Source: Selenomonadales bacterium 4137-cl (GTDB lineage: Bacteria; Bacillota; Negativicutes; Sporomusales; UBA7701). From it: a stretch of DNA of 64,000 nucleotides. This document shows, in pieces, positions 5,658 to 13,003 of the stretch. Every line of letters begins with the position of its first letter. The stretch's first letter is position 1. Position numbers and translations under genes: made by a program. The stretch lies in contig JAUOZS010000001.1 in NCBI GenBank assembly GCA_032334055.1, positions 1,648,501 through 1,712,500 of the forward strand, in the 5' to 3' direction. The notes below the pieces were generated by a model. It saw only the letters and a program-made list of their open reading frames with translations, was not told the DNA's origin and made no database searches.

Positions 5658-7358
5658 ATGCGCGCATCCCAGCTATACGCCCCGACGCTGCGGGAAACGC
5701 CGGCCGAAGCCGAGGTAATCAGCCATCAGCTCATGCTGCGGGCCGGGTTCATCCGCAAGGCGGCCGGCGGCATTTACAACTACCTGCCCCTGGCCTGGCG
5801 GGTGCTGAAGAAGATCGAGAAGATCGTCCGCGAGGAGATGGACGCCAAGGGAGGCCAGGAACTGCTGATGCCGATCGTGCTGCCGGCGGAGATGTGGCAG
5901 GAGACGGGCCGCTGGGACGTTTACGGCGACGAGATGTTTCGCCTGAAGGACCGTCACGGCCGCGACTTTTGCCTGGGGCCGACCCACGAGGAGATGGTCA
6001 CCACCCTCATCCGCGACGAGGTGCGCTCTTATCGCCAATTGCCGCTGATGCTGTACCAGATCCAGAACAAGTTCCGCGACGAGATCAGGCCGCGGTTCGG
6101 GCTGATGCGCGGCCGCGAGTTCATTATGAAGGATCTTTATTCGTTCGACCGCGACGAAGCCGGTCTGGACGAAAGCTATAACAAGATGTACGACGCCTAC
6201 AGCCGCGTTTTCACCCGCTGCGGGCTGACCTTCCGCCCGGTCGAGGCCGACCCCGGCGCCATCGGCGGGAAGGGGAGCCACGAGTTCATGGTCATCGCCG
6301 ATTCGGGCGAGGCGGCGATCGTGTACTGCGGCGGCTGCGACTACGCCGCCAACGTCGAGAAGGCCGAGCTGCACCCGCTCGAGGCGCCGGCCGAGGCTCC
6401 CGCGGAGCTTGTCCTCAAGGACACCCCCGGCACGAAGACGATCGCCGCGGTGGCCGAGTTCCTCGGCCTGCCCGCCGCCAAGACGGTCAAGACGCTGGCC
6501 TATCTGACCGACAAGGGGCTGGTGTTCGCCCTGGTGCGCGGCGACCACGACGTGAACGAGATAAAGGTGCAGAACGCCGTCGGCGCGATCTTTCTGCAGA
6601 TGGCCGACGAAGCCTCGCTGGCGGCCGCCGGCACTTCCCCCGGCTTCATGGGGCCGATCGGTGTCAAGGATGTAATCGTGGTGGCGGACGCGACGGTGAT
6701 GAAGATGTACAATACGGTCGTTGGCGCCAACGAGCCGGACCGCCACTATGTCAACGTCAATCCCGGCCGGGACTTTAAGCCGGCCGTCGTTGCCGACATC
6801 CGCCTTATCCGCGAGGGCGACCCCTGCCCGCGCTGCGGCGAGCCGGTGAAGACGGCGCGCGGCATCGAGGTGGGCCAGGTGTTCAAGCTGTATACCAAGT
6901 ATTCCAAGGCCCTGAACGCCACTTACCTGGATGAGAACGGCCAGGAACAGACGATCGTGATGGGCACGTACGGCATCGGCGTAACCCGCACGATGGCCGC
7001 CGCCATCGAGCAAAATAACGACGCCAACGGCATTATTTGGCCGGCAGCCATCGCTCCCTTCCATGCCGCCGTTATCCCGGTGAACAACGCCGACCAGGGC
7101 CAGCGCGAGCTGGCGGAAAAGCTCTACGCCGAGCTTGCCGCCGCCGGTGTCGAGGTTGTCCTCGACGACCGCGACGAACGGGCGGGGGTGAAGTTCAAGG
7201 ACGCCGATCTGATCGGTTATCCGCTGAAGGTGACGATCGGCGCCAAGGCGGTGAGCGAGAACAAGGTGGAGGTCAAGACGCGGCGCGGCGGCGAAGTACA
7301 CTTTTTCCCGGCGGAGGAAGCCGTCGAAGGGATTAAAGCCCTGCTGGCGAAGCTGTAA
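5658..7358 (+). CDS. proS: Prolyl-tRNA synthetase (bacterial type with editing domain)
   Basis: This class II synthetase attaches proline to tRNA-Pro. The 566-residue length is that of the bacterial ProS, with the INS editing domain inserted between class II motifs 2 and 3. Motif 2 is within [28 protein letters not shown]. The editing domain spans roughly residues 225-400. The anticodon-binding domain occupies the C-terminal 100 residues ([11 protein letters not shown] onward). An excellent GAGGAGG lies 7-12 bases before the ATG. The gene closes the operon, as a strong terminator follows immediately. Confidence 0.98.
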
Positions 7359-7582: not shown

Positions 7583-10500
7583 TTGCATACCTACTGCATC
7601 ATCCCCGATAAAACCCAGAGCCTTCTCGACCTGCTTGCGGAGCTCGAGCTGACCGGCGCCGAGCGCGAGCAGCTGACGAACGTGGTCGTCGCCAAGGTTA
7701 ATGTCGATACCGATGCCCCCGGGTGGGAGGTCCATCTGACCGCCCCCGTGCCGCTGCCGGCCAACGTGCTCGACCGCGCCGCCGCCCATCTCTGCCGGCG
7801 CTGCGGCCTTAAGCATACGTCTTTCGTGCTTGCCGCAACCAAGGATTTCGGGCAATATCTCGCCGAAGACTGGCAGGCTTTCGTTAGCGGCGTGGCCGGC
7901 GGCAACCCGACCATCCGTCATCTGCTGTCCGGTGCCAAGTGGCAGTTCGACGGTCACACTCTTGTCCTGGAGACGAACGGCGACCTGTCCGGCCAGATAC
8001 TATCCGCCCGCGGCGTTGATAAGGCGATTGTCGCCTTTGTCGCCGAAAAATTTTCCCGGCCATGCGCGGTGGCGTTCCTGAGCGTTGCCGCCGTCGAGCC
8101 GGAACCATGCGACGAGGAGCCGCCGGGGAACGGTTATCCTGAGCCTGCGGCCGAGAAAGGTCCCGCCGCGGCGAAGAAAAAAGCGCCCGAGAACCCGCTG
8201 CTGTTCGGCCGCGTGATCAAAAACGACGCTGTGCCGCTGGCGAGCATTGAGGAGGAGGGACGCAACGTCATCGTCGCCGGGCAGATCGTCAAGCATGAAC
8301 TGCGAGAGCTTAAGTCGGGACGGACGCTGCTGTCGTTCGATATCGCCGATCTCGGCGGCGGCATAAGCGGCAAGGCCTTTTTCGACGATAAGGCCCAGAT
8401 CGCCAAGCTGGCGGCCGGGCTGGCCGACGGCATGCTCGTCAAGGTCAAGGGGACGGTCCAGTACGACAAGTACGCCAATGAACTGGTGATGTTCGCCGAC
8501 AGCATGTGCCGCCTGGCGAAGCCCGAGCGCACCGATACGGCGGAGGTGAAGCGGGTGGAGCTGCACGCCCATACCCGGATGAGCGCGCTTGACGCCGTGG
8601 TGGCGACCAAGGCGCTGATTAAGACGGCCGCCCAATGGGGGCATCCGGCGGTGGCGATCACCGACCACGGTGTCGTGCAGGCTTTCCCGGAGGCGGAGGA
8701 GGTGGCGGCGAAAGCAGGCATCAAGGTTATCTACGGCATGGAGGGCTATTTGTTCGACGACGACATCAACCATGCCTATCATATAATCATTCTCGCCAAA
8801 AACAGCGTCGGCCTCCGCAACCTCTACAGGCTGGTGTCGTTGTCCCACCTCAAGTACCTGCACCGCACGCCCCGCATTCCGCGAGCCATCCTGGCCGAGT
8901 ACCGTGAAGGCCTTGTTTTAGGTTCGGCCTGCGAGGCAGGAGAGTGCATGCAAGCGCTCATTAACGGCGCCAAGGATGAAGAGGTGGTGCGTATCGCCAC
9001 TTTTTACGATTATCTTGAAATCCAGCCGGCCGGCAACAACGAGTTCCTGGTGCGCCAGGGACGGATCGCCGACGAGGAGGGGCTGCGCGACCTCAACCGG
9101 CGGATTTGCTCCCTGGGCGAGCGGCTGGGCAAGCCGGTGGTCGCGACCTGCGACGTCCATTTCCTCCAGCCGGAGGACGAAGTCTACCGGCGCATCCTCA
9201 TGACCGGCCAGGGTTACGATGATGCCGACAAGCAGCCGCCGCTGTTTTTCCGCACGACCGGGGAGATGCTGGCCGAATTCGCCTATCTCGGCGAGGCCAA
9301 GGCCTACGAGGTGGTCGTCGAGAATACCCGCCTGATAAGCGAAGGGATCGAGGCGTTCAAGCCGATTCCCGAAGAGCTTTACTCGCCGAAGATCCCCGGC
9401 GCCGAGGAGCAGATCAAGTCGATGTCTTATGCCAAAGCCCGCAAGCTCTACGGCGACGATTTGCCCGAGCTGGTGGCCGACCGGCTGAAGTACGAGCTCG
9501 ATTCGATTATCAACAACGGCTTCGCCGTGCTGTACCTCATCGCTCACAAGCTAGTCAAGAAGTCGCTCGACGACGGTTATCTGGTAGGGTCGCGAGGCTC
9601 GGTCGGTTCCTCGTTCGTCGCGACGATGACCGATATTACCGAGGTCAACCCGTTGCCGCCCCACTGGCGCTGTCCGGCCTGCCGCTGGAGCGAGTTCGTC
9701 GCCGACGGAACGTACGGCTGCGGCTTCGATATGCCCGACCGCGTCTGCCCGACCTGCGGCGAGGCGGCCATCAAGGACGGTCACGATATTCCGTTCGCCG
9801 TATTCATGGGTTTTCACGGCGACAAGGTGCCCGATATCGACCTCAATTTCTCCGGCGAATACCAGCCGGTGGCCCACAAGTATACCGAGGAGTTGTTCGG
9901 CCGCGACAACGTGTTCCGCGCCGGCACGATCGCCACGATCGCCGATAAGACGGCTTACGGGTTTGTCCGCAATTACTTCGCCGACAAGGGCATAACCGCC
10001 CGCAACGCTCATATCAACCACCTGATAAGCGGCTGCACGGGGGTGAAGCGGACCACCGGCCAACACCCCGGCGGCATCATGGTTGTGCCGCGGGACATGG
10101 ATATCCACCATTTCACGCCGATTCAGTACCCGGCCGATGACAAGAATTCGGCCACCATCACCACGCATTTCGATTATCATTCCATTTCCAGCCGGCTGGT
10201 CAAGCTCGATATCCTCGGCCATGACGACCCGACGGTCATCAAGATGCTGGAGGATCTGACCGGCCTCGATCCCAAGGCGATCCCTTTTGACGACAAGCCG
10301 ACGCTGAGCCTGTTTTCGTCCACCGAGGCTCTCGGCCTCAGCCCCGCGGAGCTCGGCTCGACGGTGGGCACGTTCGGCATCCCCGAGTTCGGGACGAAAT
10401 TCGTCCGCCAGATGCTGGAGGACACCAAGCCGCAGAATTTCAGCGAGCTTGTCCGTATCAGCGGCTTTTCCCACGGCACGGATGTGTGGCTGAACAACGC

Positions 10501-11254
10501 CCAGGATCTCATCAAGAGCGGCACGGCCAAGCTGTCGGAGGCGATTTCGGCCCGCGACGACATTATGGTTTACCTTATCCAAAAAGGCGTGAAGCCGCAG
10601 ACGGCTTTCAAGGTTATGGAGGACGTCCGCAAGGGCAAAGGGGTGAAGCCCGACGATGTGGCGGTGATGTCGGAGCACGGCGTCCCCGCCTGGTACGTGG
10701 AGTCGTGCCAGAAGATCAAGTATATGTTCCCCAAGGCGCACGCGGTGGCGTACGTGATGATGGCGTTCCGCATCGCCTATTGCAAGATCCACCACCCGCT
10801 CGCTTTCTATGCGTCGTATTTCACGGTGAGGGCGACCGAGTTCGACGCCGATCTCATCGTCAGAGGCGTGCCGGCTCTCCGCCAGAAGCTGGCCGAGCTG
10901 GAGCAGAAGGGCCCGTCCGCTTCGGCCAAGGAAAAGGGACTGGCGACGATCATCGAGATGGCGCTGGAGATGTATTTGCGCGGCTATAAGTTCGAGCGCG
11001 TCGATCTGTATAAATCGGACGCCACCCGCTTTCTGATCGTCGACGGGGGCCTGCAGCCGCCGCTGGCGTCGCTGCAGGGGGTGGGGGACAACGCGGCCCG
11101 CAATATCGTGGCCGCCCGCGCCGGGAAGCCTTTCACGTCGGCGGAGGATCTGCGCGCGCGCAGCCGGGCGGCCAAGCCGGTCATCGACACGCTGCGCGAG
11201 CACGGCGCGCTAGGCGACCTGCCGGAAGACGACCAGATCGCCCTTTTCGCCTGA
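7583..11254 (+). CDS. polC: DNA polymerase III alpha subunit, PolC type, lacking the exonuclease domain
   Basis: This is the replicative polymerase of Firmicutes. It starts at TTG with AGGAGAG 6 bases upstream. The order of parts is: N-terminal domain (about 1-170), OB-fold (about 205-315), PHP domain starting with VELHAHT (His328, His330), the Cys-rich zinc module of PolC (CPAC...CPTC), the catalytic palm Asp pair in PDIDLNFS (Asp751, Asp753), and the thumb/finger region ending in YMFPKAHAVAYVMMAFRIAY. It has 1223 residues, against about 1430 in B. subtilis. The difference is explained by the absence of the roughly 170-residue DEDD 3'-5' exonuclease that normally interrupts the PHP domain. 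Here residues 387-400 run directly from one PHP half into the other, and no DxETTG motif is present anywhere. The frame is continuous. Confidence 0.97.
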   Translation: MHTYCIIPDKTQSLLDLLAELELTGAEREQLTNVVVAKVNVDTDAPGWEVHLTAPVPLPANVLDRAAAHLCRRCGLKHTSFVLAATKDFGQYLAEDWQAFVSGVAGGNPTIRHLLSGAKWQFDGHTLVLETNGDLSGQILSARGVDKAIVAFVAEKFSRPCAVAFLSVAAVEPEPCDEEPPGNGYPEPAAEKGPAAAKKKAPENPLLFGRVIKNDAVPLASIEEEGRNVIVAGQIVKHELRELKSGRTLLSFDIADLGGGISGKAFFDDKAQIAKLAAGLADGMLVKVKGTVQYDKYANELVMFADSMCRLAKPERTDTAEVKRVELHAHTRMSALDAVVATKALIKTAAQWGHPAVAITDHGVVQAFPEAEEVAAKAGIKVIYGMEGYLFDDDINHAYHIIILAKNSVGLRNLYRLVSLSHLKYLHRTPRIPRAILAEYREGLVLGSACEAGECMQALINGAKDEEVVRIATFYDYLEIQPAGNNEFLVRQGRIADEEGLRDLNRRICSLGERLGKPVVATCDVHFLQPEDEVYRRILMTGQGYDDADKQPPLFFRTTGEMLAEFAYLGEAKAYEVVVENTRLISEGIEAFKPIPEELYSPKIPGAEEQIKSMSYAKARKLYGDDLPELVADRLKYELDSIINNGFAVLYLIAHKLVKKSLDDGYLVGSRGSVGSSFVATMTDITEVNPLPPHWRCPACRWSEFVADGTYGCGFDMPDRVCPTCGEAAIKDGHDIPFAVFMGFHGDKVPDIDLNFSGEYQPVAHKYTEELFGRDNVFRAGTIATIADKTAYGFVRNYFADKGITARNAHINHLISGCTGVKRTTGQHPGGIMVVPRDMDIHHFTPIQYPADDKNSATITTHFDYHSISSRLVKLDILGHDDPTVIKMLEDLTGLDPKAIPFDDKPTLSLFSSTEALGLSPAELGSTVGTFGIPEFGTKFVRQMLEDTKPQNFSELVRISGFSHGTDVWLNNAQDLIKSGTAKLSEAISARDDIMVYLIQKGVKPQTAFKVMEDVRKGKGVKPDDVAVMSEHGVPAWYVESCQKIKYMFPKAHAVAYVMMAFRIAYCKIHHPLAFYASYFTVRATEFDADLIVRGVPALRQKLAELEQKGPSASAKEKGLATIIEMALEMYLRGYKFERVDLYKSDATRFLIVDGGLQPPLASLQGVGDNAARNIVAARAGKPFTSAEDLRARSRAAKPVIDTLREHGALGDLPEDDQIALFA

Positions 11255-11959: not shown

Positions 11960-13003
11960 ATGAATGCAGAGTTCATGCAAGCTTTCGAGCAGCTTGGAAG
12001 GGAGAAGGGAATCGCACCGGAGGTGTTGTTTGACGCCATCGAGGCTGCCCTGATTTCCGCTTATAAGCGTAACTTCAGCTCGGCCCAGAATGTCCGCGTG
12101 GCCCTTGACCGCGACACGGGGGAAATCCACGTTTACGCCCGCAAGGCGGTGGTGGAGGATGTGGCCGACCCGCGGCTGGAGATATCTCTGCCTGAGGCGC
12201 GTGAACTAGACCCGCGCTACGAACTGGAAGACGTCGTCGAGCTTGAGGTGACGCCGAAGAACTTCGGCCGGATCGCGGCCCAGACCGCTAAACAGGTGGT
12301 GGTGCAGCGTATCCGCGAGGCCGAGCGCGGCATAATCTATGAGGAGTATTCCAGCCGGGAGAGCGATATCGTTACAGGCATCGTGCAGCGCATCGAGGCC
12401 AAAAACGTGTTTGTCGATCTTGGCAAGGCCGAGGCCATCCTTCAGCCGTCGGAGCAGATTCCCGGCGAGGTTTACCGGCACAGCGACCGCCTGAAAACTT
12501 ATATCATCGAGGTCAAGAAGACGACCAAGGGTCCGCAGATTTTGGTGTCGCGCACTCATCCCGGCCTTTTAAAACGTTTGTTCGAGCTTGAGGTTCCGGA
12601 GATCCACGACGGCATCGTCGAGATCAAGTCGGTAGCCCGCGAGCCTGGCCTGCGCTCAAAGATCGCCGTCCATTCGCGTGACGAGAACGTCGATCCGGTC
12701 GGTTCCTGTGTCGGCCATAAAGGCATGCGGGTGCAGACGATCGTCAATGAGCTCAAGGGCGAGAAGATCGACATTGTCAAGTGGAACGCCGACCCGGCCA
12801 AGTATATAGCCAACGCTCTCAGCCCGGCCAAGGTGGTCGCCGTTGACGTCAACGAGACGGAGAAGGCGTCGCGGGTCATCGTGCCCGATTACCAGCTTTC
12901 GCTCGCCATCGGCAAGGAGGGCCAAAACGCCCGGCTGGCCGCGAAGCTTACCGGTTGGAAAATAGATATCAAGAGCGAGTCCCAGGTCCAGACGCCTGAG
13001 TAG
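11960..13003 (+). CDS. nusA: Transcription termination/antitermination factor NusA
   Basis: NusA binds RNA polymerase and nascent RNA, and modulates pausing, termination and antitermination. It has 347 residues, the short Firmicute form without the C-terminal acidic repeats of E. coli. An N-terminal polymerase-binding domain (about 1-125) is followed by an S1 domain starting near [21 protein letters not shown]1 (about 200-275, [20 protein letters not shown]) and KH2 ([23 protein letters not shown]) follow. GGGGG sits upstream of the ATG. Because it lies in an operon with a palindromic leader, autoregulation is plausible. Confidence 0.98.

What the first reader, a model, noticed from the sequence alone, without database searches (positions are those of the whole stretch)
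8741..8800. PolC without its 3'-5' exonuclease domain
Seen directly: the PHP domain of this PolC runs without interruption across residues 387-400 (GYLFDDDINHAYHI). In B. subtilis PolC a DEDD exonuclease of about 170 residues is inserted here; its DxETTG motif is nowhere in the protein. Length is 1223 versus about 1430 residues. Established knowledge: this insert is the proofreading activity of Firmicute replicases. Inference: the organism must proofread with a separate DnaQ-type subunit or tolerate higher mutation rates. It may be a lineage-wide trait and already noted for some PolC proteins.
Basis: partly seen in the sequence, partly recalled or inferred. Interest (0 to 1): 0.7.

Follow-up and report, generated by a model that had tools for sequence, protein, structure and literature searches.

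The report
Replicative polymerase lacking its proofreading exonuclease
This bacterium's PolC replicative DNA polymerase lacks the built-in exonuclease that corrects errors in Bacillus; the same gap is found in related bacteria of its class and in other Bacillota lineages (already reported in 2013), in one genus two species keep only a remnant without its catalytic residues and a third has lost it, and an intact metal site in the neighbouring PHP domain likely does the proofreading instead.

Summary
The PolC at 7583-11254 (1223 aa, between proS and rimP-nusA) has 12 residues where other PolCs carry a DEDDh exonuclease insert of about 210. It is not an assembly error: congeners lack it too. It is not new: Timinskas et al. 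2013 (PMC3919608) reported exo-less PolC in Negativicutes and Clostridia.

What I add:
(1) All 141 exo-less rows scored keep the nine PHP metal ligands. In 11 of 69 exo+ rows they are broken, nine by the Asp-to-Asn change that kills the M. tuberculosis PHP nuclease.
(2) The NN of a PHP motif, QPxxNN, goes the same way: 141/141 exo-less, 0/11 broken.
(3) Exo-less rows are not one clade (AU p = 3.4e-5).
(4) One unnamed genus shows intermediate stages: two species keep a remnant with all five catalytic positions changed, a third only a 39-residue linker.
(5) Stand-alone PF00929 exonucleases are not enriched in exo-less genomes, and 11 of 40 have none.

No enzyme was assayed, and the PHP asymmetry rests on few independent events.

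The parts
7583..11254 (+). polC, exonuclease-less PolC-type DNA polymerase III alpha, 1223 aa
   Evidence: open frame; NF001688 1555 bits (cut-off 873), TIGR01405 1420 bits (cut-off 1043)
7622..7804 (+). N-terminal NI domain, weak match
   Evidence: PF14480, 21.3 bits, just under its 22-bit cut-off
8267..8503 (+). OB fold, N-terminal to PHP as in other PolCs
   Evidence: PF01336, 27.4 bits (cut-off 27)
8546..9382 (+). PHP domain, residues about 322-600; Pfam core 326-473
   Evidence: PF02811, 116 bits; partition used
8744..8779 (+). 12-residue loop (388-399) at the place where other PolCs carry the DEDDh exonuclease; predicted turn between two strands
8564..8572 (+). PHP ligands H328 and H330
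8591..8593 (+). PHP ligand D337
   Evidence: mis-indexed, corrected
8666..8668 (+). PHP ligand H362
8741..8743 (+). PHP ligand E387
8780..8782 (+). PHP ligand H400
8930..8932 (+). PHP ligand C450
9152..9160 (+). PHP ligands D524 and H526; D524 aligns with N in G. kaustophilus PolC 3f2b and, by its place in the ligand order, corresponds to M. tuberculosis DnaE1 D226
   Evidence: PMC5636811 passages
9023..9040 (+). QPxxNN motif (residues 481-486) whose NN goes with an intact PHP site
9392..10852 (+). polymerase core, residues 604-1090 as partitioned
   Evidence: PF07733, PF17657
11234..11248 (+). predicted beta-clamp binding motif QIALF at the C-terminus
5658..7358 (+). proS, proline--tRNA ligase (upstream neighbour)
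   Evidence: NF006625, 833 bits
11465..11923 (+). rimP (downstream neighbour)
   Evidence: best RimP model 146 bits, under its 163-bit cut-off
11960..13003 (+). nusA (downstream neighbour)
   Evidence: TIGR01953, 452 bits

Best explanation
This is a PolC whose PHP domain is not interrupted by the DEDDh exonuclease and keeps all nine metal ligands, and it likely proofreads with that PHP metallo-nuclease alone. Shown: the exonuclease is absent; the PHP ligands and the NN of the QPxxNN motif are intact here and in all 141 exo-less rows scored; exo-less rows are not one clade; in one genus the exonuclease occurs as a remnant without its catalytic residues or is deleted, while the flanking parts stay under purifying selection. 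Inferred: a mispaired 3' end moves from the polymerase site into the PHP pocket, which would carry three zinc ions as in M. tuberculosis DnaE1, and is trimmed there. In G. kaustophilus PolC the exonuclease sits in the loop beside that pocket (PMC5636811); without it the loop is short. DnaE1 of the same cells also has an intact PHP site and would edit likewise.
For: Nine of nine ligands in 141 of 141 exo-less rows; of 69 exo+ rows 58 intact and 11 broken, nine of these by D to N at the eighth ligand. The same change (D226N) abolishes the M. tuberculosis PHP exonuclease, and G. kaustophilus PolC, with one ligand changed, is said to show no exonuclease activity from this site (PMC5636811 passages; the N is visible). 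NN of QPxxNN: 141/141 exo-less, 54/58 exo+ with intact ligands, 0/11 exo+ with broken ligands. PHP columns invariant in 59 exo-less representatives 38, in 46 exo+ representatives 19; polymerase core 110 and 118 (the exo+ set includes seven with broken ligands). Genus g170: two remnants with dN/dS 0.36 between them (two pairs of intact inserts 0.09 and 0.11), one deletion, PHP ligands intact in all three, no PF00929 match in any of the three genomes. 11 of 40 exo-less genomes have no PF00929 match; DnaE1 has nine intact ligands in all 11. Model of residues 205-1223: pLDDT 89; top PDB matches 3f2c and 3f2b, TM 0.91/0.93.
Against: No nuclease activity was measured here, and I saw none reported for an exo-less PolC. 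Intact PHP ligands are also the rule with the exonuclease present (58 of 69 exo+ rows), so they do not by themselves prove that PHP took over. By my reading of the tree the broken sites are about three to five events; with pol-core branch length 15.5 (exo-less) and 13.3 (exo+), three events all falling on the exo+ side has a chance of about 0.1, five about 0.02. The PHP-to-core rate difference is weak (p = 0.021; 0.048 against exo+ rows with intact ligands). In the window's class 238 of 252 genomes have at least one PF00929 match, and the best model for both own stand-alone proteins is annotated as a DNA polymerase III epsilon. PHP domains may have other roles: a 2016 paper ties E. coli DnaE, apparently its PHP domain, to pyrophosphatase activity (PMC4822814, title and start of abstract in the listing).
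Confidence: 0.6

Rival explanations
1. A separate DnaQ-like DEDDh exonuclease binds the exo-less PolC (or DnaE1) and proofreads in trans, as epsilon does in E. coli.
For: The window's genome encodes two DEDDh proteins, 183 aa and 291 aa, both with DFETA and HNxxFD motifs; the best NCBIfam model for both is a DNA polymerase III epsilon model, E 3.4e-63 and 7e-57. 238 of 252 genomes of the class have at least one PF00929 match. Firmicute DnaE1 proteins keep a conserved putative epsilon-binding patch (PMC3919608).
Against: 11 of 40 exo-less genomes and 14 of 252 genomes of the class have no PF00929 match; numbers are not raised in exo-less genomes. Many listed matches lie in frames of 840-1000 aa, which by length look like DinG (recalled, not tested). 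Both own proteins fall below every cut-off listed in NCBIfam; the 291-aa one ends in a SWIM zinc finger. The 183-aa protein has no match to a loose clamp-motif pattern; the 291-aa one has only QVALM. Exonucleases outside PF00929 and gaps in draft genomes are not excluded.
Confidence: 0.18
2. DnaE1, not PolC, copies most of the chromosome in these bacteria, so loss of the PolC exonuclease is tolerated without replacement.
For: Timinskas et al. raise this for PolC + DnaE1 systems and cite the exo-less PolCs in support (PMC3919608 passages). The genome has a full-length DnaE1-type polymerase with nine intact PHP ligands and a QLGLF stretch seen in its sequence.
Against: PolC keeps a consensus-like clamp motif (QIALF) and a highly conserved polymerase core, and its PHP ligands stay intact in 141 of 141 exo-less rows, which a minor enzyme without need of editing would not require.
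Confidence: 0.15
3. These lineages simply replicate with less proofreading and a higher mutation rate.
For: No DEDDh domain is attached to any of the three C-family polymerases of the genome.
Against: The trait is found in all 148 listed genomes of the class and in 26 further families, which is unlikely for a mutator state; PHP ligands are kept.
Confidence: 0.05
4. Assembly or frame artefact in the window.
For: None found.
Against: Clean frame; three congeners at 83-91% identity agree, and no listed relative carries PF00929.
Confidence: 0.01

Closest known systems
PolC variants without Exo insertion (Timinskas et al. 2013, PMC3919608; passages, section 19 and section 23 part 1 seen)
   Same: Same domain order, no exonuclease in PHP, found in Negativicutes and Clostridia, together with DnaE1.
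   Different: That paper counts 6% of PolC (16% in PolC + DnaE1 systems) and gives no history of the loss in the parts I saw; here the trait is in all 148 listed genomes of the class, is not one clade, and one genus shows intermediate stages.
Geobacillus kaustophilus PolC (3f2b/3f2c) and the PolC chain 9qpc
   Same: Same core; the model superposes on 3f2b/3f2c at TM 0.91/0.93.
   Different: Those PolCs carry the exonuclease insert (3f2b was crystallised without it: legends in PMC3919608 and PMC3656037; 9qpc has about 200 extra residues there) and have N at the eighth PHP ligand; the window has no insert and D.
PHP-proofreading DnaE1 of M. tuberculosis (PMC5636811, passages seen)
   Same: All nine PHP ligands present; a loop instead of the exonuclease; no attached DEDDh enzyme.
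   Different: Different polymerase form (DnaE, not PolC); its loop is longer (29 residues); zinc content and nuclease activity shown there and not here.
Sporomusa ovata PolC1 (PMC4632017, passages seen)
   Same: Same class; the paper already remarks that its PHP domain has all metal ligands and could proofread, and reports a PHP substitution at position 587 arising in laboratory adaptation. An S. ovata PolC (L058) is exo-less with intact ligands; that PolC1 is this gene is my inference.
   Different: The passages do not mention the missing exonuclease domain.

Membership tests
PolC-type DNA polymerase III alpha | Scores above the curated PolC models | tested here: met
   NF001688 1555 bits (873), TIGR01405 1420 bits (1043)
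PolC-type DNA polymerase III alpha | OB fold N-terminal to PHP, HhH and clamp motif at the C-terminus | tested here: met
   PF01336 at 229-307, PF14579 at 1135-1214, QIALF at 1218-1222
PolC-type DNA polymerase III alpha | NTD with NI/NII | tested here: inconclusive
   PF14480 21.3 bits against cut-off 22
PolC-type DNA polymerase III alpha | DEDDh exonuclease inserted in PHP (called a hallmark, with exceptions, in PMC3919608) | tested here: not met
   so it is filed as the exo-less variant, not as canonical PolC
Exo-less PolC variant (PMC3919608) | PolC lacking the Exo insertion, in Clostridia/Negativicutes, paired with DnaE1 | tested here: met
PHP-proofreading replicase (M. tuberculosis DnaE1 type) | Nine intact PHP metal ligands | tested here: met
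   H328 H330 D337 H362 E387 H400 C450 D524 H526
PHP-proofreading replicase (M. tuberculosis DnaE1 type) | Zinc-dependent 3'-5' exonuclease activity | not testable with these tools
   needs purified protein
PolC + DnaQ in trans | Dedicated epsilon-like partner present throughout exo-less genomes | tested here: not met
   no PF00929 match in 11 of 40 exo-less genomes and 14 of 252 genomes of the class; for the window's own genome alone inconclusive (two DEDDh proteins)

The most novel reading that the evidence does not exclude
A large share of Bacillota, including the whole class of this organism, replicate with a PolC whose only editing site is the zinc PHP pocket. The DEDDh exonuclease is the dispensable partner of a two-proofreader enzyme. 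It has been discarded repeatedly, always where PHP is intact, first by loss of its catalytic residues and then by deletion, whereas Bacillus-like lineages went the other way and let PHP die. PolC evolution would thus be a natural experiment in swapping proofreaders.
Probability: 0.48. Interest if true: 0.66.

Novelty: new member of a known kind. Interest (0 to 1): 0.45.

Why it matters
Proofreading sets the mutation rate, and the DEDDh insert is the textbook proofreader of Firmicute replicases. If PHP alone edits in these lineages, the PHP nuclease is a main proofreader of PolC as well as of DnaE1. The g170 genus gives an evolutionary before-and-after comparison for the switch, and exo-less PolC is a natural counterpart of the engineered exo-deleted constructs used for structures. 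The open question whether PHP of any PolC edits DNA becomes directly testable with a natural enzyme that has no second nuclease attached.

Tried and rejected
Assembly or frame error: rejected. Exonuclease encoded elsewhere as a split-off domain: the two own DEDDh proteins are only 27-32% identical to PolC exonuclease domains; one exo-less genome, G293, has a 192-aa stand-alone protein 48% identical to them, but this is not general. One single loss: exo-less rows held as one clade lower lnL by 320, p-AU 3.4e-5. Finding the ancestral state by rooting with DnaE1: inconclusive; the root fell on one odd row (L220), with a branch of 1.74 on each side, and there exo-less rows are the deepest with weak support, so a first PolC without exonuclease is not excluded. 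Exonuclease tree against core tree: broadly alike by eye, L132 differs, bootstrap not settled, no formal test. PHP rate test: weak. A count of all exo-less genomes in the phylum was not reached: of 116 genomes with a strong but unlisted match after, 80 were re-searched and 36 were not, and most of those 80 were not read as sequence. Supplementary files of the papers could not be looked up. The paper searches (and 75 and 76 aimed at vestigial or lost exonuclease) listed no paper that by title or abstract reports a decaying PolC exonuclease; the one 'vestigial' passage of PMC12926913 seen concerns PolA2. They cover open-licence PMC text only.

Full report
WHAT IS THERE. The window's PolC (7583-11254, +) is an intact 1223-residue frame that scores above the curated PolC models. 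It lies among ispG, proS, polC, rimP, nusA and, a little further on, infB (rimP matches below its cut-off). I take this as the usual Firmicute locus, from recall. Pfam finds OB, PHP, polymerase, finger and HhH domains and no RNase_T. The PHP domain runs through the place where the exonuclease sits in other PolCs: 12 residues separate ligands E387 and H400, against 210-219 in the 69 exo+ rows. The AlphaFold2 model of residues 205-1223 has mean pLDDT 89 and makes this stretch a turn between two strands. Its best PDB matches are 3f2c and 3f2b, G. kaustophilus PolC, TM 0.91/0.93.

HOW COMMON. In the class, searched 252 genomes and all had a match at E<=0.001. The listing shows 150 PolC rows from 148 of them, each one alignment running through the site, with open frames of 938-1350 aa (counted). 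The other 104 genomes were not listed, and at least one (G070) gave only a distant match. Thirty distinct rows from 16 families of the class were read as sequence, and all are exo-less. Over everything fetched by then, 236 loci gave 230 PolC frames and 212 distinct rows with the window's own (which counts twice, as WIN and L007): 141 exo-less, 69 exo+, 2 fragments. By unnamed family, 42 of 90 were exo-less only, 47 exo+ only and one both. Sixteen of the 42 belong to the window's class, and rows were picked partly by score, so this is not a rate.

ALREADY IN PRINT. Timinskas et al. 2013 (PMC3919608; passages, section 23 part 1, section 19) found 6% of PolCs without Exo, in Clostridia and Negativicutes with one Thermotogae exception, and called it surprising. 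A 2015 Sporomusa ovata paper (PMC4632017, passages) notes that its PolC1 PHP has all metal ligands and could proofread. A 2026 survey (PMC12926913, passages) credits most Clostridia with three active proofreaders and says PHP is often inactive in PolC + DnaE3 systems; the passages I saw do not treat exo-less PolC. The points below I did not find in the listings.

THE PHP SITE. All nine ligands are present in 141 of 141 exo-less rows. Of 69 exo+ rows 58 are intact and 11 broken: nine HHDHEHCNH, one T for C, one PF for HC. The D-to-N change at the eighth ligand is, by ligand order, the one that abolishes the M. tuberculosis DnaE1 PHP exonuclease (D226N). The same paper says that G. kaustophilus PolC has one ligand changed and no exonuclease activity there, and that the PolC exonuclease is inserted in the loop next to the PHP active site (PMC5636811, passages). 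One search shows the N in 3f2b. A second feature, the NN of QPxxNN (residues 481-486), is present in 141/141 exo-less rows, in 54/58 exo+ rows with intact ligands and in 0/11 with broken ones (only NN was scored). Its role is unknown to me; that it goes together with the ligands suggests it serves the nuclease. Invariant PHP columns number 38 in 59 exo-less and 19 in 46 exo+ representatives, while the polymerase core has 110 and 118; seven of the 46 have broken ligands, which explains part of this. Relative PHP rates on end branches are slightly lower in exo-less rows (median 1.42 against 1.66, p = 0.021; p = 0.048 against exo+ rows with intact ligands), a weak result. The broken sites are about three to five events by my reading of the tree; with the branch lengths, three events all on the exo+ side has a chance of about 0.1 and five about 0.02.

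HISTORY. On a tree of 105 representatives (46 exo+, 59 exo-less; insert columns left out) the state changes at least 6 times on starred branches, 7 by parsimony; a second alignment with DnaE1 added forces 5. Holding exo-less rows as one clade is rejected, p-AU 3.4e-5. All 46 exo+ representatives have the DEDDh residues, and all 69 exo+ rows match the three motifs. Their exonuclease tree resembles the core tree by eye, which speaks for inheritance and losses rather than repeated capture. The DnaE1-rooted tree did not settle the first state.

INTERMEDIATE STAGES IN ONE GENUS. Family f48 has 16 genomes here; one, G634, was fragmentary and not scored. Twelve of the other 15 have a DEDDh insert of 213 residues. 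Genus g170 has three genomes. G375 and G487 carry an insert of 198 residues in which all five catalytic columns have changed in the alignment (AAGGE and AGGGE for DEDHD), and Pfam finds no RNase_T in it. G346 has only 39 residues there. Their parts after the site are about 92% identical. PHP ligands are intact in all 15. Between G375 and G487 the insert has dN/dS 0.36 against 0.10 and 0.13 for the flanking parts; two pairs of intact inserts give 0.09 and 0.11, the latter with saturated dS. None of the three g170 genomes has a PF00929 match, while all 12 others do. The simplest reading, an inference, is that the exonuclease was inactivated, drifted and in one species was deleted, with PHP kept. 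These are draft genomes.

IS THERE A SUBSTITUTE DnaQ? PF00929 was sought in 40 exo-less and 40 exo+ genomes. All 40 exo+ genomes rang in a PolC-length frame, which is the positive control; 11 of 40 exo-less genomes (94-100% complete) had no match. Outside PolC the means are 1.20 and 1.05 per genome, p = 0.43 (counting one match per exo+ genome as PolC). DnaE1 in all 11 empty genomes has nine intact PHP ligands; that of G346 is a contig-end fragment. In the window's class 14 of 252 genomes have no match and 238 have at least one. The window's genome has two DEDDh proteins of 183 and 291 aa, whose best model is annotated as epsilon but which fall below all listed cut-offs, and a DnaE1-type and a third DnaE-like polymerase, both with nine PHP ligands. 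A trans enzyme is thus possible here but unlikely as the general answer.

CONCLUSION. The gene is an ordinary member of a published PolC variant. The best-supported mechanism is PHP-only proofreading, inferred and not assayed. The new and testable part is the one-sided pattern, that the exonuclease is gone only where PHP is intact, and the genus in which the domain is found as a remnant and as a deletion. On re-checking, odds were lowered slightly (0.62 to 0.60; novel case 0.50 to 0.48) because the event count behind the PHP asymmetry is small.

Noticed in passing
L268:1283-4813 (own genome, C1 about 1316482-1320012): A third C-family polymerase of 1176 aa, DnaE-like with intact PHP ligands, carries an intein-like insert of about 160-190 residues in its YGFNK/SH motif (PF14890, 28.2 bits, below its 35.8-bit cut-off).
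   Followed up: partly
L269 (G293, family f72): A genome with exo-less PolC encodes a 192-aa stand-alone exonuclease 48% identical to PolC exonuclease domains; it could be a PolC exonuclease set free or a different DnaQ.
   Followed up: partly
G551, C1:1540406-1544619: PolC of this single-contig genome reads as two frames with stops inside one match; sequencing error or broken gene.
   Followed up: no
G073 and G075 (family f24, genus g46): Two long PolC frames per genome, of exo-less length.
   Followed up: no
L114, L220, L096, L103: Exo-less PolCs with longer linkers (30-84 residues) at the exonuclease site, perhaps scars of loss.
   Followed up: partly
L287-L294: Second DnaE-type polymerases in several genomes (frames mostly 1033-1057 aa) carry the same D-to-N change at the eighth PHP ligand as G. 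kaustophilus PolC.
   Followed up: no
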